Assembly (NCBI GenBank): GCA_001725155.1
Contig: MEFP01000004.1
Span: forward strand, 62,001 to 126,000
Direction: 5' to 3'
Source: Lysobacteraceae bacterium SCN 69-320
GTDB taxonomy: Bacteria; Pseudomonadota; Gammaproteobacteria; Xanthomonadales; Rhodanobacteraceae
Length of the DNA stretch: 64,000 nt
Part shown: piece by piece, positions 1,777-15,944 of the stretch
How positions within the stretch are numbered: the first letter of the stretch is position 1
How the letters are laid out: each line of letters starts with the position of its first letter
Position numbers and translations under genes: made by a program
The notes under the pieces: model-generated
The model's input: only the letters and a program-made list of their open reading frames with translations
The model's database searches: none
What the model was told of the DNA's origin: nothing

Positions 1777-2098
1777 TTCTGTCCCTCATTGTCCCTGCTG
1801 CGGGACAATCATTCCCGAATCGACCCACTAATCAAAGCCAAGGTCGGGCCCACTTTTCCGTCCTGCTTCCCTGGCGTCGAGGAAATCTCCGAGCAAGCGT
1901 AACGCCCCGGCCGTTGGAGCCCCTTGGTTCAAGGGGCGGAGAAACGTCTGCAAAGCAGGCCACTGGCGGGGTTGTGGGGATGAGCAGCATGGCCTGGGAG
2001 CCTCGCTGCGCAGGCTTGCTCAGAACTTCCCTGGCAGGCGAGATCCGACGGATCCCGTCGCGGCGCACACGGACAGCTATCGCATGAGGTCGGTTTTC
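1777..2098. promoter_or_regulatory. Divergent control region between lysR and the SDR-RND operon
   Basis: This 322-base gap has no supportable gene. It holds the LysR-type palindrome (1788-1809) next to lysR, an extra TGTCCC half-site at 1781-1786, and a perfect 8-bp hairpin GCCCCTTG/CAAGGGGC (1919-1926 and 1930-1937) in the probable leader of the rightward operon. The hairpin lacks a T-run. No -35/-10 pair stands out on the plus strand. GAGGT at 2086-2090 is the ribosome binding site for the ATG at 2099. Confidence 0.6.
1788..1809. promoter_or_regulatory. Operator-like palindrome ATTGTCCC-N6-GGGACAAT
   Basis: This is a perfect 8-bp inverted repeat with a 6-bp spacer, centred about 22 bases upstream of the lysR start. 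It contains the T-N11-A core expected of LysR sites. A further TGTCCC at 1781-1786 gives a third half-site in phase. Its position suits autorepression and activation of the divergent operon. Confidence 0.65.
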
Positions 2099-2809
2099 AT
2101 GAAATCCAGCGTCATCGTCATCGGCGCCAGTGGCGGCATCGGCAGCGGCGTCGTCGCCAGCCTGCTGGCCGAGGGCTATCCCGTCGTCGCCGTCGGCCGG
2201 CATCGCGACACCCTGCTGAACCTGGCCGACCGTCTGGGCCGGCCGGCCGCGCTGACCCTGCTGACCGCCAGCGTCGAGAGCGACAGCGGCGCCAAGGATC
2301 TCGTGCAGCAGCTCGTCGCGTTGCGCCGCCGCTTTGCCGGCGCCGTCGTGGCCATCGGCCCCGAAGCCGACTGCGGCCGTCTGCTCGACCGCGACGGCAT
2401 CTTCCTCGAAGACCATCTGCATGCGCATGTGGTCGCCCAGTTCAACGCCGCGCGCGCACTGATCCCGCTGTTCGCGCAGCACTCGCCCAATGCGCTCTAC
2501 CTCGGCATCGCCAGCGCGGCGACCGAGCATCCCTGGTGCGGCTACGGTCATTTCTCGGTGACCAACGCCGCGCTGCGCATGCTGGCCAAGGTCGTCCACG
2601 GCGAAAGCCGCGACCTGCCCGTGCGCGTGCAGCAGCTCGCCCTCGCCGGCCTCGTGCGCACCTGGCGCAACGGCGACTGCGCCTGCAGCGAATGGATGGA
2701 CGTGGACAGCGTCGGCCGCGGCGTCATCGACCTTCTGCAGCACTCCGACGGCAGCGCGGCCGTGGTCCACCTGCGCGCCGGCGGCAGCCCCGAACCCGTA
2801 CCCGATTGA
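2099..2809 (+). CDS. SDR-fold protein lacking the catalytic Tyr/Lys (probable pseudoenzyme), first gene of RND operon
   Basis: The 236-residue protein begins with the Rossmann motif GASGGIG (9-15) and has short-chain dehydrogenase/reductase spacing throughout. Where active SDRs read Y-S-x-S-K-A-A-L it reads F-S-V-T-N-A-A-L (Phe152, Asn156), so both catalytic Tyr and Lys are replaced and reductase activity is unlikely. It may bind NAD(P) as a sensor or scaffold. ATG 2099 was chosen over ATG 2084 because GAGGT lies 8 bases before it. It ends 21 bases before the adaptor gene, so it is probably cotranscribed with the pump. An oxidoreductase-like gene beside a LysR-controlled RND pump recalls mexS-mexT-mexEF, but the family differs. 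Confidence 0.85.
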   Translation: MKSSVIVIGASGGIGSGVVASLLAEGYPVVAVGRHRDTLLNLADRLGRPAALTLLTASVESDSGAKDLVQQLVALRRRFAGAVVAIGPEADCGRLLDRDGIFLEDHLHAHVVAQFNAARALIPLFAQHSPNALYLGIASAATEHPWCGYGHFSVTNAALRMLAKVVHGESRDLPVRVQQLALAGLVRTWRNGDCACSEWMDVDSVGRGVIDLLQHSDGSAAVVHLRAGGSPEPVPD

Positions 2810-2830
2810 AGATCCGAAGGAGTGGAAACC

Positions 2831-4039
2831 ATGCAAGCCAAAACCACGATTCCCGTCTGGCCCGCGCTGGCCAATGCCGGCCTGCTGATGCTGCTCGGCA
2901 TTGCCCTGGCCGGTTGCAGCCACTCGGGGCCGCCGCCGCAGATGCCGCCGCCGCAGGTCAGCGTCGCGACGGTGGTGCAGAAGGACGTGACGCTCTGGGA
3001 CGAGTTCACCGGCCGCATCGAGGCCGTCGACAAGGTCGAAGTGCGCCCGCGCGTCGCCGGCTATCTCGACAAGGTCAATTTCGAGGAAGGCCGCCAGGTC
3101 AGGAAGGGCGACCTGCTGTTCCAGATCGACGACCGCGAATACCGCGCTGCGCATTCGCGCGCCACGGCCGAAGTCGAACGCGCCCGCTCGCGCGCCGCGC
3201 TGGCCCAGCGCCAGCTCGAACGCTCGCGCCAGCTCGTCGCGAACAAGCTCGTCGCGCGCAATGACGTGGACCTGCGCGAGGACGAGCTGGCCCAGGCCCT
3301 GGCCGACGTCAAGGCGACCCAGGCCGCGGCCGAGCAGGCGCGTCTGAACCTCGAGTTCACGCGCGTGACCGCACCGATCGACGGCCGCGTCGGCAAGGCG
3401 CTGGTAACACCGGGCAACCTCGTCGCGCCGGGCAGTTCGCTGCTGACGACGGTGGTCTCGATGGACCCGGTCTATGTGAGTTTCGAGGGCGACGAGAACA
3501 CCTATCTGCGCTACCAGGGCCTGGAGCGCGCCGGCGAGCTGCCGAGCGCGCGCGAGGCCGGCAATCCGGTGCGCATGGGGCTGGCCGACGAGGAAGGCTT
3601 CCCGCATACGGGCAGCATGAACTTCATCGACAACGAGCTCGATGCAGGCACCGGCACGATCCGCGCGCGCGCCGTGTTCTCGAACAAGGACGGCCGCTTC
3701 ACGCCGGGCCTGTTCGCGCGCGTGCAGCTGCTCGGCAGCGGCGCCCAGTCGGCACTGCTGATCAGCGACCGCGCCGTGCTGACCGACCAGGACCGCAAGT
3801 TCGTCTACGTGATCGGCCCGGAGAACAAAGCACTGCGCCGCGACGTCAAGCTCGGCGCCCAGGTCGACGGCCTGCGCATCGTGACCGACGGCCTCGCGGC
3901 GAACGACCGCATCGTCGTCAACGGCGTGCAGAAGGTGTTCTTCCCGGGCATGCCGGTGGATCCGCAGCCGGTTCCGATGGAGAAGCCCGAGCAGGCGCCG
4001 GCGGTGGCTGCGGTGGGCGGGGGGGCTTTGATTTTCTGA
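2831..4039 (+). CDS. RND efflux periplasmic adaptor (membrane fusion lipoprotein, MexE-like)
   Basis: The 402-residue product starts with a lipoprotein signal ending in the lipobox LAGC. It continues with the HlyD/AcrA pattern: a barrel-sandwich half (about 45-80, VRPRVAGYLDKVNFEEGRQV), an alpha-helical hairpin (about 95-170) rich in Ala, Arg and Glu, the second lipoyl half (TRVTAPIDGRVGKALVTPGNLV), then beta-barrel and membrane-proximal domains. It would link the inner-membrane pump to an outer-membrane channel. ATG 2831 follows AAGGAG (2817-2822) by 8 bases and is preferred to the GTG at 2822. The pump gene follows after 186 bases that hold a large hairpin repeat. Confidence 0.95.
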   Translation: MQAKTTIPVWPALANAGLLMLLGIALAGCSHSGPPPQMPPPQVSVATVVQKDVTLWDEFTGRIEAVDKVEVRPRVAGYLDKVNFEEGRQVRKGDLLFQIDDREYRAAHSRATAEVERARSRAALAQRQLERSRQLVANKLVARNDVDLREDELAQALADVKATQAAAEQARLNLEFTRVTAPIDGRVGKALVTPGNLVAPGSSLLTTVVSMDPVYVSFEGDENTYLRYQGLERAGELPSAREAGNPVRMGLADEEGFPHTGSMNFIDNELDAGTGTIRARAVFSNKDGRFTPGLFARVQLLGSGAQSALLISDRAVLTDQDRKFVYVIGPENKALRRDVKLGAQVDGLRIVTDGLAANDRIVVNGVQKVFFPGMPVDPQPVPMEKPEQAPAVAAVGGGALIF

Positions 4040-4050
4040 TCGATGGCTTG

Positions 4051-4153
4051 AAACCCATCCCCACCCACACCCTCCCCTTGAAGGGGAGGGCTTGAAGGCA
4101 GCCTCGCCAAAACCCTCCCCTTCAAGGGGAGGGCATGGGTGGGGATGGGTTTT
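4051..4153. repeat. Compound REP/BIME-like hairpin inside the RND operon
   Basis: Outer arms AAACCCATCCCCACCC (4051-4066) and GGGTGGGGATGGGTTT (4138-4153) enclose two nearly perfect 21-bp palindromes of the form CCCTCCCCTT-G/C-AAGGGGAGGG (4070-4090 and 4113-4133). The same arms recur at 26315-26379 and in shortened form at 31061-31089, so this is a dispersed repeat family. Its place between the adaptor and pump genes suggests it could stabilise the upstream mRNA or reduce pump expression relative to the adaptor. Confidence 0.8.
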
Positions 4154-4225
4154 CGCCTCGGATTCAAGCAAGAAAACCAGCCAAGCCCCGACAAAACAAA
4201 GCTTCCCCGGTAAAGGAGTACAACC

Positions 4226-7200
4226 GTGGATTTTTCCCGATTTTTCGTCGACCGCCCGATCTTCGCGGCGGTCCTGTCCATCATCATCTTCGTGGCCGGC
4301 CTCATCGCGATTCCGATGCTGCCGATCAGTGAATACCCCGACGTCGTACCGCCGTCGGTGCAGGTGCGCGCGGTCTATCCGGGCGCCAACCCCAAGACCA
4401 TCGCCGAGACCGTCGCCGCACCGCTCGAAGAAGCGATCACCGGCGTGGAGAACATGATCTACATGAAGTCGGTCGCCGGTTCCGACGGCGTCATGACCTT
4501 GACGGTCACGTTCAAGATCGGCACCGACATCGACCTCGCGCAGGTGCAGGTGCAGAACCGCGTGAGCCAGGCCACGCCGCGCCTGCCGGAAGACGTGCGC
4601 CGCCTCGGCGTGACCACGCTCAAGCAGTCGCCGAACCTGACCATGGTCGTGCACCTGCTTTCACCGAAGGGCAACTACGACATCACCTACCTGCGCAACT
4701 ACGCGGTGCTGCACATCAAGGACGAGCTCGCGCGCATTTCCGGCGTGGGCCAGGCGCTGATCTTCGGCGCCGGCGACTATTCCATGCGCGTCTGGCTGCA
4801 GCCCGACCGCGTCGCTGCGCTGGGCCTGACCGCCGGCGACGTCGTGCGTGCGATCCAGGAGCAGAACCTGCAGGTCTCGGCCGGTTCCATCGGCGCGCCG
4901 CCGCAGAAGAACAATGCCGAGCTGCAGCTGTCGATCAACGCCCAGGGCCGCCTGGTCACCGAGGAAGAATTCGGCAACGTCGTCATCAAGACCGACGCCA
5001 ACGGCACGGTCGCACGCCTCAAGGACGTCGCGCGCATCGAGCTCGGTGCGTCGGAGTACGCGCTGCGTTCGCTGCTGTCGAACCAGCAGGCCGTCGCGAT
5101 CCCGATCTTCCAGGCGCCCGGCAGCAACGCGATCGCCATGTCCGACGCCGTGCGCGAGAAGATGGGCGAACTGGCCAAGCAGTTCCCCGAAGGCGTGACC
5201 TGGGACGTGGTCTACGACCCGACCGTGTTCGTGCGCGATTCGATCAAGGCCGTCATCACGACCCTGTTCGAAGCCATCGCGCTCGTCGTCATCGTCGTGA
5301 TCCTGTTCCTGCAGACCTGGCGCGCGTCGATCATTCCGCTGCTGGCCGTGCCGGTGTCGGTCGTCGGCACCTTCGCCGTGCTGTGGATGCTCGGTTTCTC
5401 GGTCAACGTGCTGACCCTGTTCGGCCTCGTGCTCGCGATCGGCATCGTCGTCGACGACGCGATCGTCGTGGTCGAGAACGTCGAGCGCAACATCGAGGAA
5501 GGCCATGCGCCGCTGGAAGCCGCACACCGCGCGATGAGCGAAGTCAGCGGCCCCATCGTCGCGATCGCCCTGGTGCTCTGCGCGGTGTTCGTGCCGATCG
5601 CCTTCATCGACGGCGTGACCGGCCAGTTCTACCGCCAGTTCGCCGTGACCATCGCGATCTCCACGGTGATCTCGGCGATCAACTCGCTGACCCTGTCGCC
5701 GGCCCTGGCCGCGGCGCTGCTCAAGCCGCACGGCGCGCCCAAGGATCGCCTGACGCGTCTGATCGACGCGACCTTCGGCTGGGTGTTCCGCCCGTTCAAC
5801 CGCTTCTTCCGCCGCGCCAGCGAGGCGTATGCGAACGGCGGCCGGCCCGCACTCAAGCGCGCGCCGCTGATGCTGCTCGTGTACGCGCTGCTGGTCGGCC
5901 TGACCGTGATCGGTTTCCGCGCGGTGCCCGGCGGCTTCATCCCGACGCAGGACAAGCTCTACCTGTTCGCCGGCACGAAGCTGCCCGAAGGCGCGTCGCT
6001 GGACCGCACCGAGGCGGTGATCCGGCGCATGAGCCAGATCGCGCTGGAAACCCCAGGCGTGGCGACTGCGGTCGCATTCCCGGGACTCAACGCGATCCAG
6101 TTCACCAATACGCCGAACATGGGCACGATCTTCTTCGGCCTGAAGCCGTTCGCCGAGCGCAACGGGCAGAGCGCCGAACAGATCGTGCAGCAGCTCAACA
6201 TGCGCTTCTTCGGCGAGATCAAGGAAGGCCTCGCGTTTGCGGCCATGCCGCCGCCGGTGCTGGGGCTCGGTCAGTCGGCCGGCTACGAGATGTACGTGCA
6301 GGACCGTTCGGGTCTGGGCTACGGCGAACTCACGCGCCAGGTCGAGGCGCTCAGCGGCGCGATCATGTCCACGCCGGGCTTCGAGCGGCCGTTCAGTTCC
6401 TACCAGTCCAACGTGCCGCAGCTCAATGCCGACGTGGATCGCATCAAGGCCAAGGAGCAGGGCGTTGCATTGACCGATCTGTTCGAGACCCTGCAGGTCT
6501 ATCTGGGCTCGCGCTACGTCAACGACTTCAACCGCTTCGGCCGCACCTACCAGGTCATCGCCCAGGCCGACGCGAACTATCGCGACGAGGTCGACGACAT
6601 CGCCAACCTCAAGACGCGCAACGCCGCCGGCGAGATGGTGCCGATCGGCAGCGTGGTGAAGATCGGCCAGAGCTACGGCCCCGATCCGGTGATCCGCTAC
6701 AACGGCTATCCGGCGGCCGACCTGCAGGGCGGCGCCGATCCGCGCCTGCTGTCCTCGGCCCAGGCCGTGCAGGGCGTCGCCGCGTTCGCGCATCGCCAGC
6801 TGCCGGCCGGCATGAGCTTCGAATGGACCGCGCTGACCTACCAGCAGGTGACCCAGGGCAAGGCCGCGCTGCTGGTGTTCCCGCTCTGCGTGCTGCTGGT
6901 ATTCCTCGTGCTCGCCGCGCTGTACGAGAGCTGGTCGCTGCCGCTGTCGGTGATCCTGATCGTGCCGATGTGCATGCTCTCGGCGATCACCGGCGTCTGG
7001 CTGACCGGCGGCGACAACAACATCTTCACCCAGATCGGTCTGGTCGTGCTGATGGGGCTGGCCTGCAAGAACGCGATCCTGATCGTCGAGTTCGCGCGCG
7101 AGCTGGAACAGAAGCAGGGCCTGGGCATCGTCGACGCGGCGCTGGAAGCCTGCCGTCTGCGTCTGCGCCCGATCCTGATGACGAGTCTGGCCTTCATCAT

Positions 7201-7393
7201 GGGCGTGGTGCCGCTGGTGTTCGCCCACGGCGCCGGTGCGGAGATCCGCCACGCGATGGGCGTGACCGTGTTCGCCGGCATGCTCGGCGTGACCCTGTTC
7301 GGCCTGTTCCTGACGCCGGTGTTCTACGTGATCATCCGCAAGCTCGCGACGCGCCGGCGCAAGCCGGCGCTGCAGCCGGCGGCGGCGCACTGA
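4226..7393 (+). CDS. RND multidrug efflux permease, HAE1 family (MexF/OqxB-like)
   Basis: The 1055 residues match the usual HAE1 length. The protein starts DFSRFFVDRPIFAAVLSIII (first membrane helix), has the large periplasmic loop with the porter motif PRLPEDVRRLGV, the TM4 pair Asp410-Asp411 in GIVVDDAIVVVEN needed for proton relay, and a second membrane half from about residue 880. It is an inner-membrane proton antiporter that exports hydrophobic or amphiphilic compounds. The start is GTG, with AAAGGAG (4212-4218) 7 bases before it. No outer-membrane factor gene follows, so the trimer must use a TolC/OprM-type channel encoded elsewhere. The substrate cannot be read from the sequence. Confidence 0.96.
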   Translation: MDFSRFFVDRPIFAAVLSIIIFVAGLIAIPMLPISEYPDVVPPSVQVRAVYPGANPKTIAETVAAPLEEAITGVENMIYMKSVAGSDGVMTLTVTFKIGTDIDLAQVQVQNRVSQATPRLPEDVRRLGVTTLKQSPNLTMVVHLLSPKGNYDITYLRNYAVLHIKDELARISGVGQALIFGAGDYSMRVWLQPDRVAALGLTAGDVVRAIQEQNLQVSAGSIGAPPQKNNAELQLSINAQGRLVTEEEFGNVVIKTDANGTVARLKDVARIELGASEYALRSLLSNQQAVAIPIFQAPGSNAIAMSDAVREKMGELAKQFPEGVTWDVVYDPTVFVRDSIKAVITTLFEAIALVVIVVILFLQTWRASIIPLLAVPVSVVGTFAVLWMLGFSVNVLTLFGLVLAIGIVVDDAIVVVENVERNIEEGHAPLEAAHRAMSEVSGPIVAIALVLCAVFVPIAFIDGVTGQFYRQFAVTIAISTVISAINSLTLSPALAAALLKPHGAPKDRLTRLIDATFGWVFRPFNRFFRRASEAYANGGRPALKRAPLMLLVYALLVGLTVIGFRAVPGGFIPTQDKLYLFAGTKLPEGASLDRTEAVIRRMSQIALETPGVATAVAFPGLNAIQFTNTPNMGTIFFGLKPFAERNGQSAEQIVQQLNMRFFGEIKEGLAFAAMPPPVLGLGQSAGYEMYVQDRSGLGYGELTRQVEALSGAIMSTPGFERPFSSYQSNVPQLNADVDRIKAKEQGVALTDLFETLQVYLGSRYVNDFNRFGRTYQVIAQADANYRDEVDDIANLKTRNAAGEMVPIGSVVKIGQSYGPDPVIRYNGYPAADLQGGADPRLLSSAQAVQGVAAFAHRQLPAGMSFEWTALTYQQVTQGKAALLVFPLCVLLVFLVLAALYESWSLPLSVILIVPMCMLSAITGVWLTGGDNNIFTQIGLVVLMGLACKNAILIVEFARELEQKQGLGIVDAALEACRLRLRPILMTSLAFIMGVVPLVFAHGAGAEIRHAMGVTVFAGMLGVTLFGLFLTPVFYVIIRKLATRRRKPALQPAAAH

Positions 7394-7400
7394 GGCGAAG

Positions 7401-7436
7401 TCCGGCGCCCTGCCATTGAAGCGGGCGCCGGAATTT
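7401..7436 (+). terminator. Probable terminator of the RND operon
   Basis: A perfect 10-bp stem (TCCGGCGCCC 7401-7410 and GGGCGCCGGA 7423-7432) follows the pump stop codon by 7 bases. Only a short ATTTC tract comes after it. The stem is strong but the U-tract is weak. Confidence 0.55.
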
Positions 7437-7459
7437 CATCGACAGCGTAAACCCCCGAG

Positions 7460-7513
7460 AGCCCGTCTCTCCCGACGCCTCTTCCGCGAGGCGAACGGAG
7501 AGAACGGGCTTTC
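7460..7513 (+). terminator. Second long hairpin after the RND operon, TTT tail
   Basis: Arms at 7460-7472 (AGCCCGTCTCTCC) and 7497-7510 (GGAGAGAACGGGCT) pair with one bulged base, with an inner stem around 7477-7493. CGGGCTTTC at its right edge is a common form of terminator end. It separates the rightward RND operon from the leftward gene ending at 7538 and may act on both. Confidence 0.5.
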
Positions 7514-7537
7514 GCCGTTGCAGGGACATGACGCGGA

Positions 7538-8005
7538 TCAGTACCGCCGTCCCCACAGTAGTACCGGATCGAACTGGAATTCCACGCGCCGATTGCGCGC
7601 GCGGCCTTCCTCGGTGCCGTTGTCGTCGATCGGCTTCGTCTCGTCGTAGGTGATGACGGTCGGCAGCATCGCCGGGTCCATGCCGTTGGCGATCAGCCAG
7701 TCGTAGAGACCATGTGCGCGGCGCTGCGCCAAGGCCTCGCAGGCCAGGCCGCGGCGTTCGCGGTCGTCGGTGAAGCCGGCCAGCGCGAACGGATGCGGAT
7801 ACGCCTTCAGCAGGGCCACGTTCTGCTCGAGCATGGCGCGGCCGCCCTCGTCCAGCGATGCGGCGAAGGACTCGCTTTCGCGCGGGTGTCCCGCAAGAAA
7901 CGTGATTGACGGCAGTTCGGGAATTCCGCTGGCGAGCGCAGAGCGGCTTCCCCCGGCGAAACAGGTCAGCAGCAAGGCGGGCAGCAACGCATAGCGCGGA
8001 CTCAT
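7538..8005 (-). CDS. Small secreted OmpA-like domain protein
   Basis: The 155-residue product has a signal peptide (about residues 1-25). The rest is a single OmpA C-terminal-like fold: a strand-helix start (ITFLAGHPRES), the central helix with ALAGFTDDRERRGLACEALAQRRAHGLYDWL, and the C-terminal hallmark TEEGRARNRRVEF. OmpA-like domains bind the diaminopimelate of peptidoglycan; the Arg in the NRRVEF motif is present. There is no lipobox. It starts 11 bases after the LprI-ankyrin gene, with AAGGA overlapping that gene's stop codon, so it is probably translationally coupled to it. Its specific role is unknown. Confidence 0.8.
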   Translation of the reverse strand: MSPRYALLPALLLTCFAGGSRSALASGIPELPSITFLAGHPRESESFAASLDEGGRAMLEQNVALLKAYPHPFALAGFTDDRERRGLACEALAQRRAHGLYDWLIANGMDPAMLPTVITYDETKPIDDNGTEEGRARNRRVEFQFDPVLLWGRRY

Positions 8006-8016
8006 CGCGGATTCCT

Positions 8017-9630
8017 TCAGGGCGTCGGGGTCAGCAGCCGCATCATGGCCGCACGCTGCGTCTCGTCCAGCGCCGTATTGCGCGGCAGATAATCCAGCGC
8101 GCTTTCACCGTTGCTGTCACGTGCGGTCGGATCGGCGCCGGCGCCGAGCAGCGCCGCGGCGATTTCGGGCGTGGACTGCCAGGCCGCATAGATCAATACG
8201 CTGCGGCTGCCGGCCTTCAGCGCCGTGCAGCTCTTGCGCGGATCCGGATAGGTCGCGGCGTTCGCATCGGCCTGCGCAGCGAGCAGAGCCTCGACGCCGG
8301 CGCGGTTCTTTTCCGCGACCGCATGCATCAGCGCGGTCTTGCCGAAGGCATTGCGCCGGTTCGGGTCGGCGCCGGCGCGCAGCAGGATCGCGATCGCGTC
8401 GGCGCGCGCGGCCGCGCGCATCAGCGGCGTTTCCACGTCGGTGCCGGGCTTGGGATCCACGCGTGCGCCTTCGTCGACGAGACGCTGCACGACCGCAGCC
8501 GGATAGCCGTCGACGAGCGCCAGGTTCAGCAGAAAGCCGCGCAGACCGGCCGGCGAATGGTCGAGGAACTCGGCATACGGACAGCGGCGCGTCGGCAGCT
8601 CGCCGCTCTGCAGGTAACGGTCGAGATCCTCGCGCCCGTAGCAGGCGCTCGCATAGGCAAGGGGCGAGGTGTGGCCGGTGCGGCCGGTATACGTGTCGAC
8701 GATGCGCTGCACGTGATACGCGGCCAGGCGCTCGGCCGCAGCGCGATCGAGCGCGTGATCCTGCTGGTAGTGGTCCCGCAGCGCGTCGCGCGCGGCCGGC
8801 AGGTGCCGTTCGATGCGTGCGGCCTGACGCTTTTCCCAGAGCCCCTGCTGGGCCCAGTGGGCGAGATCCGGCGAATAGCCCAGATCGGCGAGGCGCCGGG
8901 CGCGTTCCGCCTCGTCCGCGGCCAAGTCGGGCTTCAGATCGACCAGCGCGAGAACGCGCGCGACCTGCTGGCGCCAGCGATACGAGCCGGCGATCGAGCC
9001 TTCGCAGACGAACTCGCCGGTGGAGCCGAACGCCGTCCAGAGCTCCTCGATCAGCGGCTGCAGCGCCGGCAGCCGCTTTGCCGCGTCCAGGCTGCGGCAC
9101 AGCGGCAGCCAGCCGTCGCGGAACGAGCCGGTCGGCGCGAACAGCCGCTCGGCGCGGCGCGGGTCGCGCTCGAAATAGCGGCACGACAGTTCGGACAGGT
9201 AGGCGTCGTTGGGGTGTACGGCGATGAGCTCGAGTTCGTCCGGTTCGAGCAGGTCGAACACGCGCAGCGCCGCGGCGATGTCCTCGGCGCCCGGTGACGC
9301 ATGCGGCTGCAGCGCCGGCGCCTCGGCGAGCAGCTCGCGCAGGCGCACCGCGTAGCTGCCATGCAGGCAGCCGGTGCTGGAGCCGCAGTCGCCGTCCCGC
9401 TGGCGCAGCCAGGCGCGCTGCGCGTCGCGCCGGGTCTCGCGGCCCTGTTCGTCGCGCTGCAGCTCGGCGTAGAGCTGGCCCAGGCGCCGGTCCTGCGCGG
9501 CGAGCCCGGTGTCGGCGCAGATCGCCTTTTCGCTCGCGCTCGCCGCGCGAGTGCAGTCGAAACTCGCCGTTGGCGGCGGCTCGGCGGCGGCCACGGCCAG
9601 ACCCAGCGCCAGCCCGATCAGCATGCTCAT
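8017..9630 (-). CDS. Secreted LprI-like (DUF1311) protein with C-terminal ankyrin repeats
   Basis: The 537-residue product starts with a signal peptide (MSMLIGLALGLAVAAAE). Residues about 22-100 follow the LprI/DUF1311 pattern with its conserved cysteines (FDC...AICAD...WLRQRDGDC), a domain found in lysozyme-inhibitor-like proteins. A middle region of about 260 residues was not recognised. From about 395 to 525 there are three to four ankyrin repeats (TPLMRAAARADAIAILLRAGADP, KTALMHAVAEKNRAGVEALL, SVLIYAAWQSTPEIAAALLGAGADP). A Sec-exported ankyrin protein beside an OmpA-like protein suggests a periplasmic binding function. It is divergent from mksF across a 131-base promoter region. Confidence 0.8.
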   Translation of the reverse strand: MSMLIGLALGLAVAAAEPPPTASFDCTRAASASEKAICADTGLAAQDRRLGQLYAELQRDEQGRETRRDAQRAWLRQRDGDCGSSTGCLHGSYAVRLRELLAEAPALQPHASPGAEDIAAALRVFDLLEPDELELIAVHPNDAYLSELSCRYFERDPRRAERLFAPTGSFRDGWLPLCRSLDAAKRLPALQPLIEELWTAFGSTGEFVCEGSIAGSYRWRQQVARVLALVDLKPDLAADEAERARRLADLGYSPDLAHWAQQGLWEKRQAARIERHLPAARDALRDHYQQDHALDRAAAERLAAYHVQRIVDTYTGRTGHTSPLAYASACYGREDLDRYLQSGELPTRRCPYAEFLDHSPAGLRGFLLNLALVDGYPAAVVQRLVDEGARVDPKPGTDVETPLMRAAARADAIAILLRAGADPNRRNAFGKTALMHAVAEKNRAGVEALLAAQADANAATYPDPRKSCTALKAGSRSVLIYAAWQSTPEIAAALLGAGADPTARDSNGESALDYLPRNTALDETQRAAMMRLLTPTP

Positions 9631-9643
9631 TGCCTATTCCCTG

Positions 9644-9662
9644 TACGGCACCGAGTGCCGTA
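9644..9662. promoter_or_regulatory. Perfect palindrome TACGGCAC-CGA-GTGCCGTA in the divergent promoter
   Basis: This exact 8-bp inverted repeat lies 13 bases upstream of the LprI-ankyrin start and 100 bases before mksF. It is shaped like an operator and could bind a dimeric regulator acting on either side. No regulator gene is adjacent. Confidence 0.45.
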
Positions 9663-9761
9663 TGCATTTTACGAAGTGCAACGGGTTGGACTGACGAAAG
9701 CCGGCGCGGAATCGGCCGGAATCCGGGCGGCGGCTTGCCTTGCCCGCCGTCATGCCCGACC

Positions 9762-11126
9762 ATGGCCGCCGCTTTTTCCCGCGATACCCGTGTGAGCGCA
9801 TCCGCGTCCGACGACGGCCTGCAGGATTTCCTGCGCCCCGGCCTGCTCGTCAACGACATTCCTGCCCTGTTCGGCCTGCGCAAGGCGCGCGAGCTGCTGC
9901 GCGCGTTCTCGACCCTGTTCCATGGCGGCGAGGATGCCGTCATGGTGCGCCTGCTCGTGCTGCGCACGATCGGCGAACGCGGCGCGGCGCCGGACTGGAG
10001 CCCGCAGGAGCTGCGCGAGCATTTCGCCTACGTCGACGCGACCAAGCTCGATACCGTGCTCGGCCGCCTGCGCGAGAACGGCCTGCTGGCCTGGGACGGC
10101 GAGACCCAGCGCTATCGCGTGAGCCCGGTCGGCCGCCAGGCCCTGTCGGCTCTGAGCCTGCTGCTGCAGTTTCAGGGCGACGGCGACGAACTGGCCTACG
10201 TGACCGCGCAGATCGCCGCCGGCGAGGCGACCGGCCGCATCGGCAGCGAGGATCTGCAGCACCTGCTGTCGCGCCTCAACGAATTGCGCGACGATTTCGA
10301 CCGCGCCGTGCTCAGCGGCTCCGAGCATCGCATCCACGCGGCCGCGGCTACCCTGAAGTCGGTCTGGCGCTGGGTCGAGAAAGGCACCCAGATCGTCAAG
10401 CTCATCGCCCAGGACGAAGAACTGGATCCGGCCACGCATCGCGTCGCGCAGCAGATCGGCCGCGCGCAGAGCGCCATGCTGCGCCAGGCCTCGGTGTTCC
10501 AGCGTGCGTTGAACCAGCTCGACCGTCATCGCGTGCATCTGGGCGGCAGCGGCCTGTCGTCCTCGGACGTGAACCAGTGGCTGCGCGCGCTGAGTGCGGA
10601 CCAGTTGGCCGCGCTGGCCGGCGACGTGCTCGCGCAGCGGCTCGCGCCGGCCTTCGTGCTTGGCGACATCGCGCTGGACGTGGCCGACTTCGAGCTGGTC
10701 GAGCGCGAGCGCGAAGTCGGTGTCGTCGAAACCTTGCCGCAGGCCAGCGACGCGCCGGAACAGGCCACGGCACCGATCGCGTCCAACGACTATGCGCTGG
10801 CGCAGGCCTGGCAGGCGCAGCTCGCCGGGCTGGCCGACGCCGTGCCGCTGGCCGGGCTCGTGCCGAGCGAGGATTTCGCGACCTCGGCCTATCGCCTGTC
10901 GCTGCTCGGCCTGCTCGGCGACCCGGCTGCGCACGCGCGCGAAGGCGCGCTGGCCGAGCTCGCGCGGCTGCCGCTGCGGCTGGAGCTCAGCGGCGCGCTG
11001 GAAGCCGTGAACGGCGCCGGCGTCGCGCAGATCAGCGCCGGCCGGCTGCGCCGCATCGACCCCGATCTTTCGCCAGACTCCGCGGCGCCGGTGCGCGACC
11101 GCGGCGAGGAACCGACGCATGAATGA
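9762..11126 (+). CDS. mksF: MksF/JetA-like kleisin subunit of an SMC anti-plasmid complex
   Basis: This 454-residue protein is first in a four-gene overlapping set typical of Mks/Wadjet systems. Residues about 20-130 look like an N-terminal winged-helix domain (LVNDIPALFGLRKARELLRAF and a LREHFAYVDATKLDTVLGRLRENGLLAW helix-turn-helix). The middle is helical, as in MukF-type kleisins that bridge the SMC heads. The short N-terminal signature does not look like the DUF3375 form of type I JetA. The function is inferred mainly from gene order and fold pattern. ATG 9762 was chosen; the frame stays open far upstream only because it shadows the divergent gene. GTG 9792 is an alternative start. It overlaps mksE by 8 bases. 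Confidence 0.72.
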   Translation: MAAAFSRDTRVSASASDDGLQDFLRPGLLVNDIPALFGLRKARELLRAFSTLFHGGEDAVMVRLLVLRTIGERGAAPDWSPQELREHFAYVDATKLDTVLGRLRENGLLAWDGETQRYRVSPVGRQALSALSLLLQFQGDGDELAYVTAQIAAGEATGRIGSEDLQHLLSRLNELRDDFDRAVLSGSEHRIHAAAATLKSVWRWVEKGTQIVKLIAQDEELDPATHRVAQQIGRAQSAMLRQASVFQRALNQLDRHRVHLGGSGLSSSDVNQWLRALSADQLAALAGDVLAQRLAPAFVLGDIALDVADFELVEREREVGVVETLPQASDAPEQATAPIASNDYALAQAWQAQLAGLADAVPLAGLVPSEDFATSAYRLSLLGLLGDPAAHAREGALAELARLPLRLELSGALEAVNGAGVAQISAGRLRRIDPDLSPDSAAPVRDRGEEPTHE

Positions 11127-11802
11127 CCCCGTGGCCGCGCTGATCGCGCGCCTGCTCGCCGAACGCTGGCTGCCGCGCGAGGACGAGCTGGCGCGCCAGG
11201 CGCTGACCGACGCCGGTTTCCGCGAAGAGCTGGACCGTCGTCTCTCCGCTGTCGGGCTGCGCCTGCTCGACCATCCGTACGCCGGCCATGTCGCCCTCGC
11301 CGTGGCCAAGGCCCAGGAAGCCGCCGTATTCGCCGGCCCGCGCGCGTGGTCGGCCAGCAACCTCGACCTGGACCGCGACAGCATCGCGCTGCTGGTCGTG
11401 CTCTGGAGCCTGCTGATCCTGCCCAAGCGCCAGCGCCAGATCCGCCGCGTCGACGCCGACCGCGACCAGGAGCAGGGCCAGATCTTCGCCGAGATGAAGC
11501 CGGTGCCGGTCGGCGCCGACGTGGCCGAGCCGCTGGCCGAGCGCACCTTGCTCGCCGACTTCGGCGACAAGCTCGGCGGCAAGATGCGCATCAACATCAA
11601 TCTCGGCGTCCTCGCGCGCCACGGCTTCATCGTGCGGCGCAAGGAACGCATCCACGAAGGGCCGCTGCTCGATCTCGCGTTCGACTACGAGCGCACGGCG
11701 CGGCGCGTGCTCGACGGCGCGCTGGCCTTCATCGTCGAGCAGGCGCGCAGCGAGCAGGCGGCGGACGACGGCGACACGGACACGGAGGCCGGTCATGTTT
11801 GA
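11119..11802 (+). CDS. mksE: MksE/JetB-like subunit of the SMC complex
   Basis: The 227-residue protein has the size of MukE/MksE/JetB. It has two winged-helix-like parts: a central hydrophobic helix with DLDRDSIALLVVLWSLLILPKRQRQ, typical of MksE proteins, and a second around residues 150-200 (FGDKLGGKMRININLGVLARHGFIVRR). MukE-type subunits dimerise, bind the kleisin and contact DNA. It overlaps mksF by 8 bases upstream and mksB by 8 bases downstream, so translation is probably coupled to give fixed subunit ratios. The assignment rests on length, the central motif and position. Confidence 0.75.
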   Translation: MNDPVAALIARLLAERWLPREDELARQALTDAGFREELDRRLSAVGLRLLDHPYAGHVALAVAKAQEAAVFAGPRAWSASNLDLDRDSIALLVVLWSLLILPKRQRQIRRVDADRDQEQGQIFAEMKPVPVGADVAEPLAERTLLADFGDKLGGKMRININLGVLARHGFIVRRKERIHEGPLLDLAFDYERTARRVLDGALAFIVEQARSEQAADDGDTDTEAGHV

Positions 11803-14617
11803 ATTCCGCGCGCTCGAAGTCGTGCACTGGGACTACTGGCAGCGCTTCACCCTGCCGCTGGACTCGGCCATCGTCACCGTGGTCGGACCCAACGGCTCGG
11901 GCAAGACCACTCTGCTCGACGCGTTGCGCACCCTGCTCGCGATCGAAGACCGCGAGACCGCGCGCGACTACAAGACCTATCTGCGCCACAACGGCAAGCC
12001 GTTCGCCTGGCTGCGCGGCGTGGTCAGCAACCGGCCCGACCGCAACGGCCGGCGGCCGTTCTTCCCGCTGATGGAGGCCGAGGTCACCCTGGCCTGCCGC
12101 ATCCGCAAGAAAGGCGGCGACTGGTCGCGCGACTACCAGATCCTCGGCGGCGACGTCAGCGTCGAGACGATAGAAGCCCAGGGCGGCGAGTGGCTGGGCC
12201 TGCGCGACTATCGCGTGCGTCTGGAAGGCGCCGGCCTCACGCGCGCGATACGCCGCGTGCTGACCCTGGAACAGGGCGCCACCGACAAGCTCTGCCAGTA
12301 CCCGCCGCGCGAACTGCTGCAGCTGGTCTGGGACGTGTTCGGCGAAAAGCCCGTGCTCGACGACTACCAGCGCGCGCGCGCCGAGCAGTTCGCGACCGAG
12401 CAGGAACTCAAGACCCTGGGCCAGGATCTGGCCGCGCTGCATACGCGTCTGGAAGCGGCCAAGGCCGACGTGCGTTCGTTCGAGGAATGCGGCGAGCTGC
12501 AGCGCGAGCGGCAGCGCCTGCAGGCCGAAGTCGCGCCGAAGGTCGCGCTGGCCGAGCGCCGCGCGAGCATGGCCGGCAGCCGTCCGCAGCTGACCGGCCT
12601 GCGCCGGGCGCTGCGCGAGATCGAACGTCGCGACGCGATGCTGGCCGACGAGCAGCGCCTCGCGTCGGCGAAACTCGATGCGGCGCAGGAAGCGCTCGGC
12701 GCCGCGCAGTCGCAGGCCATTGCCGCCGAGAGCGCGTTTCTCGCCGCACGCGACGCCGCGCGCGATGCGGAGCAGATCGACCGCCGCCGCGTACAGCTGG
12801 AAAACCTTGCCGCAAGCCAGGGCGCCGGCGACGTCGCTCAGCTGCTGCGCGCCGTGGAGACGGACCGGCGTCGTCAGGCCCAGCTCAAGCTCGCCGACGA
12901 GCAGGCTGCCGAGCGTGCGGCCGAGCTCGACGCGCAGATCGCCGCGCTGGCCAGCGGCCAGCGTTTCCAGCCGGGTTTCGAACGCGACTTCCGCGCGGCG
13001 CTGGATCGTGCCGGCATCGCCCATCGCATGCTGGCCGACTGTGTGGAGGTGACTGATCCGGCCTGGGAGGCCGCGGTCGAGGCTGTGCTGCAGCCCTATC
13101 GCCATCTGGTGCTGCTCGCCTCGCCGTCGGATGCCAAGGCGGCGTTCGGCATCGGCGAGCAGTTGCAGTATCGCCACTTCGTCGTGGCCGAACGTGCCGC
13201 GCCGCCGCCGGCGTCTCCGGGCTCGCTGCTCGAAGTGCTGCGCTTCGCCGGCGATCCGCCGTCCTGGCTGCCGCGCCAGCTCGACAAGCTGCGCCGCGTC
13301 GCCGACGTCGCCAAGGGCATGCAGCTGCCGGCCGGCCAGGACTGGATCACGCCGAAGGGCTATCTGCGCGAACACCGCGGCGGCCGCCACATCGGCACCG
13401 ACGAACGCAATTTCGGCGCCAGTGCGCGCGCGGCGCGGCTGCGCGACCTGCAGCTCGAACGCAGCCAGCTCAATGCATCCAATGAGGCGCGCCGGCGCGA
13501 GCGCAGCGAGCTGGAACAGCGCCTCGACACGAATCAGGCGCGCCTGCTCAAGCTCGACGCGGCGCAGGAGCTCGCCGCGCGCGCGGTCGAATTCGCCTCG
13601 GCCGCCGAAGCATTGCCGGCACTGCAGGCGGCCGCACAGGCCAGCGGCGCGGCGCTCAGCGCCGCGCGCAGCGCCGTCGACGACGTGCGCGAGGCGCAGA
13701 GCAACGAGCAGCGCGCCGCCGACCGCCGCGTCAGCCAGCGCGAACAGCTCGGCCGCGAGCGCGAGGAAAAGGCGCACAAGCTCGAACGCGATCGTCACGA
13801 ATACGTGCGCCGCGTGCTCGACTATCGCCGCCAGCGCAGCCTGATGCCGGCGGCCTGGCGCAGCAGCGAAGCGCTGGCCGCCGTGCTCGCGGAATTCGAG
13901 ACCGAGCACGAAGTGCAGCGCGAGCTCGACAAGATCGCCCAGCGCATCGAGCGCGGCGGCTTCGTCACCGATCCTTCCTGCGTCGCGCTGCGCGACAAGA
14001 TCGCCGCCGACCACGAGGCGCTGGAAACCACCTTGAGCCGGCGCGACGCGCATCTGCAGCGTGCTCGGCGCATCACCGACGAGGCGCGCGGCGCCTACAT
14101 CAACGTGCTGCGCGCGACGGTGCGCCAGTATGCGAAGAACCTGCGCGCGCTCGGCGAGCTGTCGGGCATCAACGTCGAAGTCGATCAGCCGGAGCTGGCC
14201 AACGACGACATCGCGCTGGCCCAGGCCGGCCTGAGCGTGCGCTTCGACTTCGACCGCAAGGGCTGGATAGGCCTCGACGACGGCGAAGCCTCCGGCGGCC
14301 AGCAGGTCATGAAGTCGCTGCTGCTGCTCGTCGCGCTGCTGCGCGACGAGACGCATCCGGGCGGCTTCGTGTTCATCGACGAACCGTTCGCGCATCTGGA
14401 CGTGTTCAACATCGAGAAAGTCGGCGGCTTCCTGCGCGCGACCGAAGCGCAGTACATCCTGACCACGCCGATCACCCACAACCTCAACGTGTTCCATCCG
14501 ACCGACCTCGTGCTGACGACGACCAAGCGCCGGCCCAACAGCCACTGGGCCGAACCGGTGGCCGTGCTCAAGCGCGCGGTCGCGGCCGAGGCGGCGCGGC
14601 GCGCGGCGACGGCGTGA
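11795..14617 (+). CDS. mksB: MksB/JetC-like SMC ATPase
   Basis: The 940-residue protein has SMC architecture. Walker A is at 31-39 (GPNGSGKTT). A coiled coil spans roughly 200-395, a small globular hinge-like domain about 403-548 (DPAWEAAVEAVLQPYRHLVLL), and a second coiled coil about 548-700. The ABC signature region is GEASGGQQVMKSLLLLVALL (about 830) and Walker B with D-loop is GFVFIDEPFAHLD (about 857-869). MksB proteins of pseudomonads are close to this length, whereas MukB is near 1490 and many type I JetC are above 1100, so the arms are short. In Wadjet/Mks complexes the ATPase extrudes DNA loops to recognise small circular plasmids, which the TOPRIM partner then cuts. Confidence 0.88.
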   Translation: MFEFRALEVVHWDYWQRFTLPLDSAIVTVVGPNGSGKTTLLDALRTLLAIEDRETARDYKTYLRHNGKPFAWLRGVVSNRPDRNGRRPFFPLMEAEVTLACRIRKKGGDWSRDYQILGGDVSVETIEAQGGEWLGLRDYRVRLEGAGLTRAIRRVLTLEQGATDKLCQYPPRELLQLVWDVFGEKPVLDDYQRARAEQFATEQELKTLGQDLAALHTRLEAAKADVRSFEECGELQRERQRLQAEVAPKVALAERRASMAGSRPQLTGLRRALREIERRDAMLADEQRLASAKLDAAQEALGAAQSQAIAAESAFLAARDAARDAEQIDRRRVQLENLAASQGAGDVAQLLRAVETDRRRQAQLKLADEQAAERAAELDAQIAALASGQRFQPGFERDFRAALDRAGIAHRMLADCVEVTDPAWEAAVEAVLQPYRHLVLLASPSDAKAAFGIGEQLQYRHFVVAERAAPPPASPGSLLEVLRFAGDPPSWLPRQLDKLRRVADVAKGMQLPAGQDWITPKGYLREHRGGRHIGTDERNFGASARAARLRDLQLERSQLNASNEARRRERSELEQRLDTNQARLLKLDAAQELAARAVEFASAAEALPALQAAAQASGAALSAARSAVDDVREAQSNEQRAADRRVSQREQLGREREEKAHKLERDRHEYVRRVLDYRRQRSLMPAAWRSSEALAAVLAEFETEHEVQRELDKIAQRIERGGFVTDPSCVALRDKIAADHEALETTLSRRDAHLQRARRITDEARGAYINVLRATVRQYAKNLRALGELSGINVEVDQPELANDDIALAQAGLSVRFDFDRKGWIGLDDGEASGGQQVMKSLLLLVALLRDETHPGGFVFIDEPFAHLDVFNIEKVGGFLRATEAQYILTTPITHNLNVFHPTDLVLTTTKRRPNSHWAEPVAVLKRAVAAEAARRAATA

Positions 14618-15876
14618 ACCGGCAGCGCGCCGACTCGCTGCTCTGGTCGGCTGCCGACGCCGACGGCATCGAGAGCGCCGCATTCGATGTCAGTTCGCGC
14701 TTTCCGCTCGGACGCCAGCGCTGGCGCCGCGCGGCAGCAGGGCGGCGCGAACCGCTCGACACCTGGTCGGCGGCGCAGCGCGAATTGCTGCGCGAATGGC
14801 TGGCCGGCGCGGCGGGTAGCCGGCGCTGGGACAGCCTGCTGAAAATCGCCGGCGGCATGCGTGTGGAACTGGCGCGGCAGCTCTGCGACGAACTGCTGCT
14901 GAATGGCTGGATAGAACGCTGCGAGTCCCGTGAGCCGCGCCGCGAGCACTGGCGCTGGACACAGATCGTCTGGTGCCGGCGCGATCGTCTGCACGCGGCC
15001 CTCGGCCTGCCGCCGCCGGATCTGCGCGAACAGGTGCGCGCCCAGCTCGCGCAGGCCGCGGCGACCTTGGGCGAATTCGCCGCGGCGCTGGACGACCTGC
15101 AGGATCGCGCCAGCGCCATCGCGCTACGGCGCCTCGCGCTGCTGCGCGCCCTGCAGGAGTGGAAAGCCCTGGCGCGCGACGGCACGCGGCGCGAATTCGC
15201 CCAGTTCGCGGGCGCGCACACCAAGTCCATCGCCGACGCCGACTGGCGCTGGCTCGACGAACGGGTCGATCTCGAAGCGTTCGGCGTGCGCCGGCACAGT
15301 CCCGCGCTGTGGCTGCGCGCGCCGCTGCGGCTGCGTCTGGCGCAGGGCGAACTCGACCTGCGCGCCGTGCCGGATCTGATCGGGTTGAGCCCGGCGACGG
15401 TCGATGCGCTCGCGGCGGCCGACGGTGAAATCGGCTGCTGGCGCCTGGTCGAAAATCGCACGAGCTTCGAGCAGGCCGCGCGTGCGTTCGGCGGACGCGA
15501 CGGCGTGATCTGGCTGCCGGGCCAGGCGCCGCCCTGGTGGTTCGCCGCCGTGCGCGCAGTGCTGCGGCTCGCGCCGGCGCCGCTGCGCATCGCCTGCGAT
15601 CCGGATCCGGCCGGCATCGAGATCGCCTTGAGCGTCGCGCGCTGCTGGGAGGAGCGTGGGCTGGGCTGGAGCGCCTGGCAGATGGACGCTGGCGCACTCG
15701 CGGCCCTGCCCAAGCGGCTGCCGCTCGTCGACGACGACCGCGCGCGGATCGCGCGGCTGCAGGTGCTGGCACTGCCGTCGACATTGCGCAGCCTGCTTCA
15801 GGCGATGCAGGAACGGGACGCCCGAGGCGAGCCGGCCAAGGGCGAGCAGGAAGGCCTGGATTTCACGCGCGACTGA
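14614..15876 (+). CDS. mksG: MksG/JetD-like TOPRIM subunit (DNA-cleaving partner)
   Basis: The 420-residue protein matches JetD/MksG in size and plan. The N-terminal half (about 1-250) corresponds to the arm/winged-helix region (DUF3322-like) and the C-terminal half to the TOPRIM (DUF2220-like). Catalytic residues are intact: Glu280 in CWRLVENRTSFEQ and the metal-binding pair Asp329-x-Asp331 in IACDPDPAGIEIA. In characterised Wadjet systems this subunit resembles topoisomerase VI A and linearises plasmids. The start is GTG in a GTGA overlap with the mksB stop, confirming a single operon. The strand then continues with an unrelated methyltransferase gene after 68 bases. Confidence 0.88.
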   Translation: MNRQRADSLLWSAADADGIESAAFDVSSRFPLGRQRWRRAAAGRREPLDTWSAAQRELLREWLAGAAGSRRWDSLLKIAGGMRVELARQLCDELLLNGWIERCESREPRREHWRWTQIVWCRRDRLHAALGLPPPDLREQVRAQLAQAAATLGEFAAALDDLQDRASAIALRRLALLRALQEWKALARDGTRREFAQFAGAHTKSIADADWRWLDERVDLEAFGVRRHSPALWLRAPLRLRLAQGELDLRAVPDLIGLSPATVDALAAADGEIGCWRLVENRTSFEQAARAFGGRDGVIWLPGQAPPWWFAAVRAVLRLAPAPLRIACDPDPAGIEIALSVARCWEERGLGWSAWQMDAGALAALPKRLPLVDDDRARIARLQVLALPSTLRSLLQAMQERDARGEPAKGEQEGLDFTRD

Positions 15877-15944
15877 TCGGTGCCGGGATCGCGGCAGCGC
15901 GCCGCGTGCGCGATCGGGCGAGGTCTTCAGGTAGGCTGCAGTGC

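What the first reader, a model, noticed from the sequence alone, without database searches (positions are those of the whole stretch)
9762..15876. Compact MksFEBG / Wadjet-class anti-plasmid operon
Seen: four overlapping genes (8, 8 and 4 bases) with an SMC ATPase (Walker A 31-39, Walker B near 857), a MukE-like and a kleisin-like partner, and a TOPRIM protein with intact Glu280 and Asp329-x-Asp331. Known: Mks/Jet/Ept complexes of this layout recognise and cleave plasmids. Inference: this is an active plasmid-restriction system with short SMC arms. The kleisin does not show the type I DUF3375 signature, so it may belong to the MksBEFG branch or a divergent subtype.
Basis: partly seen in the sequence, partly recalled or inferred. 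Interest (0 to 1): 0.7.

Follow-up and report, generated by a model that had tools for sequence, protein, structure and literature searches.

The report
DNA-looping motor with optional nuclease
A bacterium related to Lysobacter carries a compact DNA-looping machine coupled to a DNA-cutting enzyme that probably destroys plasmids, but most of the relatives that have this machine lack the cutter, so it looks like a chromosome-organising complex that can be armed or disarmed by one gene.

Summary
The four overlapping genes are real and intact: kleisin-like protein, kite, 940-aa SMC and TOPRIM nuclease, overlapping by 8, 8 and 4 nt, with ATPase and nuclease residues in place. They belong to the Wadjet/Mks group but form their own SMC clade, apart from the Wadjet I, Wadjet II, MksB, MukB and Smc references used. 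AlphaFold2 plus Foldseek supports the kite (JetB-like) and, only weakly, the kleisin (MukF-like).

The main result changes the reading. The kleisin, taken as proxy for the motor, is near-universal in Tahibacter (8 of 8 genomes), Dyella (19 of 20) and Luteibacter (23 of 23), but the nuclease is optional: 7 of 53 kleisin-bearing genomes of the family have it, 2 of 8 in the window's genus. Nuclease-less SMCs keep the nine ATPase positions checked (64 of 64 rows), with dN/dS 0.02-0.10 in 8 pairs. Nuclease and SMC trees share their main clades, so the nuclease is probably old, often lost and sometimes regained.

Most likely this copy is a loop-extruding motor armed with a JetD-type nuclease against circular DNA, built on a motor that does nuclease-independent, condensin-like work in most relatives that have it. 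Function is inferred; nothing was assayed.

The parts
9762..11126 (+). Subunit A, kleisin-like (454 aa); no family match of note
   Evidence: 0 of 35 homologues match any Pfam model at E<=0.01; AF2 model pLDDT 78.7, pTM 0.48; best Foldseek hits are chains of MukBEF entries at E 0.005-0.04, MukF by chain length (inferred), among generic winged-helix proteins: weak
11119..11802 (+). Subunit B, kite (winged-helix, JetB-like, 227 aa), overlaps A by 8 nt
   Evidence: DUF4194 E 0.0038, below its cut-off; AF2 model pLDDT 79; the three best Foldseek hits are chains of JetABC entries (JetB by chain length, inferred), E 4e-6 to 2e-5
11795..14617 (+). Subunit C, short-armed SMC ATPase (940 aa), overlaps B by 8 nt; Walker A 31-38, SMC_hinge match 410-479, signature 833-837, Walker B D862/E863
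   Evidence: SMC_N and SMC_hinge over Pfam cut-offs; conserved ATPase residues; own clade
14614..15876 (+). Subunit D, JetD-type TOPRIM nuclease (420 aa), overlaps C by 4 nt; E280, D329, D331, E411, E413
   Evidence: PADLOC JetD1 E 1e-10; hhalign to type II JetD 97%, E 1e-10; DUF2399 in 7 of 18 homologues; invariant residues
15936..16541 (+). Flanking DUF938 methyltransferase; follows C at a short distance in nuclease-less L106, L057 and L076, so it marks the empty site
8017..9630 (-). Divergent upstream neighbour (ankyrin repeats, LprI domain); context only, also found upstream in L024

Best explanation
A-B-C is an SMC-kleisin-kite motor of the Wadjet/Mks group, from a compact clade with its own kleisin and kite sequences. 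By homology it should entrap DNA and extrude loops using ATP. In this genome it is coupled to D, a JetD-type TOPRIM nuclease that would cut the DNA once a small circle has been fully extruded, which restricts plasmids. In most relatives that have the motor D is missing and A-B-C persists, so the motor must have a nuclease-independent role, most simply condensin-like chromosome organisation beside the separate Smc. D is an old partner that has been lost repeatedly and probably regained at times. Shown here: operon, residues, family placement, patchy D, constraint on nuclease-less copies, largely matching trees. Inferred: loop extrusion, plasmid cleavage, the condensin role, direction of each change.
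For: Operon and residues. Kite fold JetB-like; kleisin weakly MukF-like; D related to JetD. Near-universal kleisin: 8/8 Tahibacter, 19/20 genus g14 = Dyella (the miss is an 86% complete genome), 23/23 genus g11 = Luteibacter. D patchy: 7 of 53 kleisin-bearing genomes of the family, including 2 of 8 Tahibacter, 4 of 23 Luteibacter and 0 of the 19 kleisin-bearing Dyella; 7 of 51 in the order sample, partly the same genomes. On a tree of 87 SMCs 18 rows have D, 65 lack it, 4 are unknown; the label needs 11 changes, at least 9 on starred branches. Nuclease-less SMCs: nine ATPase positions unchanged in 64 of 64 rows; dN/dS of C 0.02-0.10 in 8 D-/D- pairs. D and C distances correlate (Mantel r 0.81 for 18 taxa, 0.91 for the 10 Xanthomonadales); main clades match. 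Presence/absence at one site: L077 against L070 and L081, shared flank starting 12-13 nt after D and 144-202 nt after C; window against L106, L057 and L076, 5, 19 and 69 nt after C; L037 against L095, 1 nt after D and 18 nt after C. No convincing D remnant in nuclease-less loci.
Against: No assay. The kleisin assignment rests on weak Foldseek hits (none at E<=0.001) and no profile match. With losses only, and the tree rooted arbitrarily on L127, 27 losses are needed, so either very many losses or some gains. D and C trees conflict at least once (D joins L060 with L077, C joins L060 with L062). The window's D sits inside a mostly D-less Tahibacter clade, which by itself fits a gain. Several empty-site comparisons are untidy or show no shared flank: L052 (926 nt after C), L031/L087, L062/L063, L107/L095; none found for L064/L068, L119/L063 and L109/L108. 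Synteny within Tahibacter is partial.
Confidence: 0.68

Rival explanations
1. A dedicated plasmid-restriction system; nuclease-less copies are decaying leftovers.
For: D intact with invariant catalytic residues and dN/dS 0.24 against T. caeni; Wadjet homologues with JetD/MksG restrict plasmids (PMC10586767 and PMC10123090, passages read).
Against: Nuclease-less copies are the majority and not decaying: ATPase positions intact in 64 of 64 rows, dN/dS 0.02-0.10 for C in 8 pairs; kleisin in nearly every genome of three genera. One nuclease-less row, L088, does have a broken C frame.
Confidence: 0.12
2. The motor is primarily a condensin and D is a cassette gained repeatedly, not an ancestral partner.
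For: D-bearing tips nest inside D-less clades in Tahibacter, Lysobacter, Luteimonas, Luteibacter and Dyella kin; mosaic C in L064, whose first two thirds are 93-98% like nuclease-less L068 but whose last third drops to 84-91% or less while L065/L068 stay at 89-94%; one D/C tree conflict.
Against: D distances scale with C distances and main clades match; in the 18 nuclease-bearing loci of the alignment D lies directly behind C. No mobile-element scars were noticed, but none were searched for systematically.
Confidence: 0.3
3. A-B-C alone is still defence, acting without cutting (DNA entrapment or silencing) or with an unrelated nuclease in trans.
For: Nuclease-independent SMC defence is described for Smc5/6 (PMC10586767 and PMC7617805, passages read). 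Not tested here.
Against: Near-universal presence in three genera is unlike the patchy spread I would expect of defence systems (the expectation is recalled); no D homologue at E<=0.001 in 46 of 53 kleisin-bearing genomes. Unrelated nucleases in trans were not searched for.
Confidence: 0.15
4. D is an independent gene that merely follows the SMC operon.
For: It is missing from most relatives.
Against: Overlap of 4 nt with C in the window and gaps of -14 to +3 nt in 16 other loci; the start codon nearest a 4-nt overlap was chosen, so exact gaps are by choice, and one further value (L041) was misassigned by the script. JetD homology; correlated distances.
Confidence: 0.03

Closest known systems
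Wadjet type II (PF18982 JetA, DUF4194 kite, JetC, JetD)
   Same: Gene order A-B-C-D; best profile matches of C and D among the classified references examined
   Different: Kleisin does not match PF18982 (0 of 35) or align by hhalign; SMC 940 aa against 1131-1195 aa; nuclease optional; separate SMC clade
Wadjet type I (DUF3375, DUF4194, JetC, DUF3322/JetD_C)
   Same: Gene order; JetC similarity (hhalign 99.4%; PADLOC JetC1); kite fold nearest the JetABC entries 8as8 and 8dk1
   Different: No DUF3375, no DUF3322; shorter SMC; a type I kleisin and kite lie elsewhere in the same genome
MksBEF (PF21980 MksE; P. aeruginosa type)
   Same: Nearly identical subunit sizes (452/233/943 aa in unnamed L177), short SMC; P. 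aeruginosa MksBEF lacks JetD and acts on the chromosome (PMC10586767, passages)
   Different: Kite not matched by MksE at E<=1; C outside the MksB clade; here nuclease state varies within a genus. P. aeruginosa sequences themselves were not compared
Corynebacterium glutamicum MksBEFG / mycobacterial EptABCD
   Same: Operon order mksFEBG and a TOPRIM nuclease with acidic metal-binding residues (PMC10123090, passages)
   Different: MksG carries DUF3322 and DUF2220 (PMC10123090); window D matches neither
MukBEF
   Same: Wadjet-group SMC without the nuclease (PMC7617805, passages)
   Different: MukB 1486 aa with its own hinge family; C not grouped with MukB
Wadjet type III
   Same: D homologues match DUF2399, which I recall as the type III nuclease family, in 7 of 18
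   Different: No Pfam match of kleisin or kite homologues to DUF2397 or DUF2398 (labels recalled)

Membership tests
Wadjet/Mks group (broad) | SMC with Walker A, signature and Walker B | tested here: met
Wadjet/Mks group (broad) | kite subunit | tested here: met
   AF2 fold nearest JetB chains
Wadjet/Mks group (broad) | kleisin bridging the heads | tested here: inconclusive
   Weak hits to MukBEF-entry chains, best E 0.005; no profile match
Wadjet/Mks group (broad) | TOPRIM JetD/MksG nuclease in the operon (absent in some members) | tested here: met
Wadjet/Mks group (broad) | ATP-dependent cleavage of circular DNA | not testable with these tools
   needs biochemistry or plasmid assays
Wadjet type I | DUF3375 kleisin | tested here: not met
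   0 of 35 homologues at E<=0.01; the same model detects references
Wadjet type I | DUF4194 kite over cut-off | tested here: not met
   window protein 17.4 bits against a cut-off of 32.7; 8 of 35 homologues match at E<=0.01, best 0.0004
Wadjet type I | DUF3322 plus JetD_C nuclease | tested here: not met
   JetD_C in 1 of 18 (not the window copy) at E 0.0036, DUF3322 in none; references match
Wadjet type II | PF18982 JetA kleisin | tested here: not met
   0 of 35; references L188-L190 match
Wadjet type II | SMC groups with type II JetC | tested here: not met
   separate clades, each at 100 SH-aLRT, with long-branch warnings on deep joins
MksBEF/MksBEFG | MksE (PF21980) kite | tested here: not met
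   no match at E<=1 for window B; none among 35 homologues at E<=0.01; reference L177 matches
MksBEF/MksBEFG | SMC groups with MksB | tested here: not met
Wadjet type III | DUF2397/DUF2398 partners | tested here: not met
   no match among A or B homologues; type labels recalled
Wadjet type III | DUF2399 nuclease | tested here: inconclusive
   7 of 18 homologues, not the window copy, best E 4.5e-8
Housekeeping Smc | TIGR02168 over cut-off | tested here: not met
   window C 94.4 bits against 567; the Smc over cut-off is at G000:C9

The most novel reading that the evidence does not exclude
A near-universal chromosomal SMC motor that switches between chromosome organisation and plasmid killing by gain or loss of a single downstream gene, repeatedly and recently, within genera. 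The clade would be a further branch of the Wadjet group caught in the transition between defence and housekeeping, in either direction.
Probability: 0.4. Interest if true: 0.75.

Novelty: new variant of a known kind. Interest (0 to 1): 0.58.

Why it matters
How plasmid-cutting Wadjet complexes relate to chromosome-organising ones such as MukBEF and Pseudomonas MksBEF is described as unresolved, with loss of JetD suggested (PMC10586767, passages read). Here closely related species carry the same motor with and without the nuclease, in some pairs at demonstrably the same site. That is a natural experiment: compare sister species, add or remove D in a laboratory host, and ask whether one gene turns a chromosome organiser into a plasmid restrictor. 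It also suggests that defence-finding tools may miss this clade (only weak, partial PADLOC hits for the window proteins), and that the SMC alone should not be read as anti-plasmid activity.

Tried and rejected
Type I, II, III and MksE assignments were tested by Pfam, PADLOC, NCBIfam and hhalign and not met. Search of solved structures by sequence gave no convincing relative of A, B or D, and for C generic SMC/Rad50 hits plus a weak JetC. A viral-contig scan with C found nothing. The kleisin had no match on plasmids; D had three, two behind a truncated C and one a fragment. D remnants in nuclease-less loci: only noise. I asked whether nuclease-bearing SMCs evolve faster than nuclease-less sisters: mixed (faster in L064, L107, L119, L031, L109 and slightly L037, L077; slower in the window, T. 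caeni, L060, L062 and the betaproteobacteria), so not used. One count was redone: a de-duplication on the first 140 residues merged species with different D status and was replaced by one on the whole matched C. Rows dropped before the tree count: 10 exact duplicates and the 144-aa fragment L030; L124, L130, L131 and L093 were unknown because contigs end too close; the separate T. caeni fragment L041 and plasmid loci L020/L021 were not tree rows. L088, with a broken C frame, is counted among the 65 nuclease-less rows but not among the 64 of the residue check. Literature: search listings (30 of 53 papers listed; 10 of 11 listed) showed no paper that by title or abstract start describes this clade; JetD-less Wadjet-group members are known from PMC7617805 (section 52 read, other passages). 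Its Data S1 operon list could not be read and may contain this clade.
Full report
Observation. C carries GPNGSGKT at 31-38, SGGQQ at 833-837 and D862/E863; D carries E280 and D329-x-D331. The window lies in a 230-kb contig of a 5.7 Mb genome. In single-contig relatives such as G004 (6.5 Mb) and G052 (4.3 Mb) the operon is on that one contig, the chromosome. Contigs shared between unnamed genus members and named records show that the genus is Tahibacter (T. caeni, T. harae, T. aquaticus, T. soli).

What the proteins are. A has no curated family match: 0 of 35 homologues match any Pfam model at E<=0.01, and window A matches no PADLOC model at E<=1. Its AlphaFold2 model (pLDDT 78.7, pTM 0.48) finds chains of MukBEF entries at the top of Foldseek (MukF by chain length, my inference), but only at E 0.005 to 0.04 with low TM-scores, followed by many generic winged-helix proteins. 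Kleisin is likely, not proven. B is a kite: DUF4194 is sub-threshold (8 of 35 homologues at E<=0.01), while the model (pLDDT 79) has three chains of JetABC entries as best PDB hits, E 4e-6 to 2e-5. C passes the Pfam cut-offs for SMC_N and SMC_hinge; the hinge match is modest and found at E<=0.01 in 7 of 16 members. D matches JetD in PADLOC at E 1e-10, type II JetD by profile comparison (97%) and, in 7 of 18 homologues though not the window copy, DUF2399.

Placement. Reference operons were collected from unnamed gammaproteobacteria by Pfam signature: type I (DUF3375), type II (PF18982) and MksE-type, plus E. coli mukFEB and the window genome's own Smc. On a tree of 28 SMCs the 15 family members form one clade at 100 SH-aLRT, apart from type I (4), type II (3) and MksB (4), each also a clade; family and Smc join at 88, and deep joins carry long-branch warnings. 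C and D score best against the type II references (an unclassified DUF4194-locus SMC, L184, comes next for C), A and B against none. The family is therefore a distinct branch of the Wadjet/Mks group. Its SMC (940 aa) is shorter than the type I and II references (1131-1195 aa) and as long as the MksB references (917-943 aa).

The nuclease is optional. In a search of 99 genomes, own included, the kleisin is found in 18, among them 8 of 8 genus members. D is found anywhere in only 4 of those 18 genomes. Across 233 genomes of the family the kleisin is in 53 and a strong D match in 7 (G000, G005, G026, G039, G173, G176, G190), all kleisin-bearing, so 46 of 53 lack it at E<=0.001; the same search found weak, remote JetD-like matches in 8 genomes without the kleisin, which shows its reach, though it scored at most 7 candidates per genome. 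In an order-wide sample the kleisin is in 51 of 378 and a strong D in 7, five of them the same genomes. Genus-wide searches give the kleisin in 19 of 20 genomes of g14 (Dyella; the miss is 86% complete) and 23 of 23 of g11 (Luteibacter) (names through shared contigs). These whole-genome counts use the kleisin as proxy; the neighbouring genes were inspected in 17 fetched and 80 named loci.

Constraint without the nuclease. Nine ATPase-related positions are unchanged in 64 of 64 nuclease-less and 17 of 17 nuclease-bearing rows (rows under 70% of C length left out). dN/dS of C is 0.02-0.10 in the 8 D-/D- pairs examined. D is also under purifying selection, 0.13-0.24 in four pairs, with higher dN than C in three of the four and lower in L113/L114. 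So nuclease-less motors are not relics, L088 with its broken frame excepted.

History. On the tree of 87 SMCs (18 with D, 65 without, 4 unknown) D status needs 11 changes, at least 9 on starred branches. The D tree repeats the main clades of the C tree (Luteibacter/Dyella kin; Tahibacter; Lysobacteraceae; betaproteobacteria), and distances correlate (r 0.81 for 18 taxa, 0.91 for the 10 Xanthomonadales, permutation p 0.0001; the rows are not independent). This favours an old partnership with many losses: 27 if only losses are allowed and the root is put, arbitrarily, on L127. But D joins L060 with L077 where C joins L060 with L062, and in L064 (Lysobacter changpingensis) the last third of C is less like its sister L068 than the rest, as if a 3' segment with D had been imported. 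Gains therefore probably happen too, and the direction in Tahibacter itself is undecided. Some empty sites are clean: L077 against L070 and L081 (shared flank 12-13 nt after D, 144-202 nt after C), the window against L106, L057 and L076 (DUF938 region 5, 19 and 69 nt after C), L037 against L095 (1 nt after D, 18 nt after C). Others are untidy (L052, L031, L062, L107 comparisons), and for L064/L068, L119/L063 and L109/L108 no flank match was found.

Mechanism. By homology with reconstituted Wadjet complexes, A-B-C should load on DNA and extrude loops, and D should cut once extrusion of a circle is complete (PMC10586767 and PMC12647877, passages read). That is inference. The nuclease-less majority most resembles P. 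aeruginosa MksBEF, a JetD-less complex that contributes to chromosome organisation (PMC10586767 passages). JetD-less Wadjet-group members are already known, MukBEF among them (PMC7617805, passages and section 52). What is new here, as far as the listings searched show, is the variation within genera on a near-universal motor, and a clade that the curated models tried do not name.

Same genome, second system. The window genome also has a type I kleisin (DUF3375) and kite (DUF4194) on the 11.8-kb contig G000:C27, where the jetC-like reading frame runs into a transposase (rve) domain. If that system is broken, the window operon may be the genome's only intact nuclease-armed SMC system of this kind; no second D-like gene reached E<=0.001.

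Verdict. This is a new variant of a known kind, interesting mainly because it makes the defence-to-condensin question testable between sister species.

Noticed in passing
L176 (G000:C27:1-11764), about 6186-9475: A second SMC system in the same genome: type I Wadjet kleisin and kite, with a jetC-like frame that runs into a transposase (rve) domain on a short contig; another transposase-like ORF lies downstream and a ThiF/E2-type gene upstream.
   Followed up: partly
L020 (NZ_LR594663.1) 4483-10104 and L039 (NZ_LR594690.1) 10316-15937: Two Variovorax megaplasmids carry, directly behind an IS1071 transposase, an SMC-like gene and a D relative; in L020 (the one scanned) only the 3' half of C is present.
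   Followed up: partly
L021 (NZ_CP049912.1) 1030-1731: A Diaphorobacter 42-kb mobilizable plasmid carries only a C-terminal part of a D relative; no A, B or C match in the 9.7 kb read.
   Followed up: no
window 1832-4654 and 4661-7390, minus strand: Two adjacent large proteins (940 and 909 aa) without a Pfam match at E<=1e-5; the 909-aa one also lies upstream of the operon in L024, L027 and L028.
   Followed up: no
L107 and L099: Two assemblies both named Luteibacter jiangsuensis differ in nuclease status and sit apart in the SMC tree.
   Followed up: no
L088 6001-8775: In a Luteibacter MAG the SMC frame is broken after about residue 614 of the model; it may be a sequencing error.
   Followed up: no
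L187 3727-9355: A DUF3584 SMC (1259 aa) with an MksE-like kite and a 406-aa third protein without a Pfam match at E<=0.01: possibly another unclassified SMC operon.
   Followed up: no
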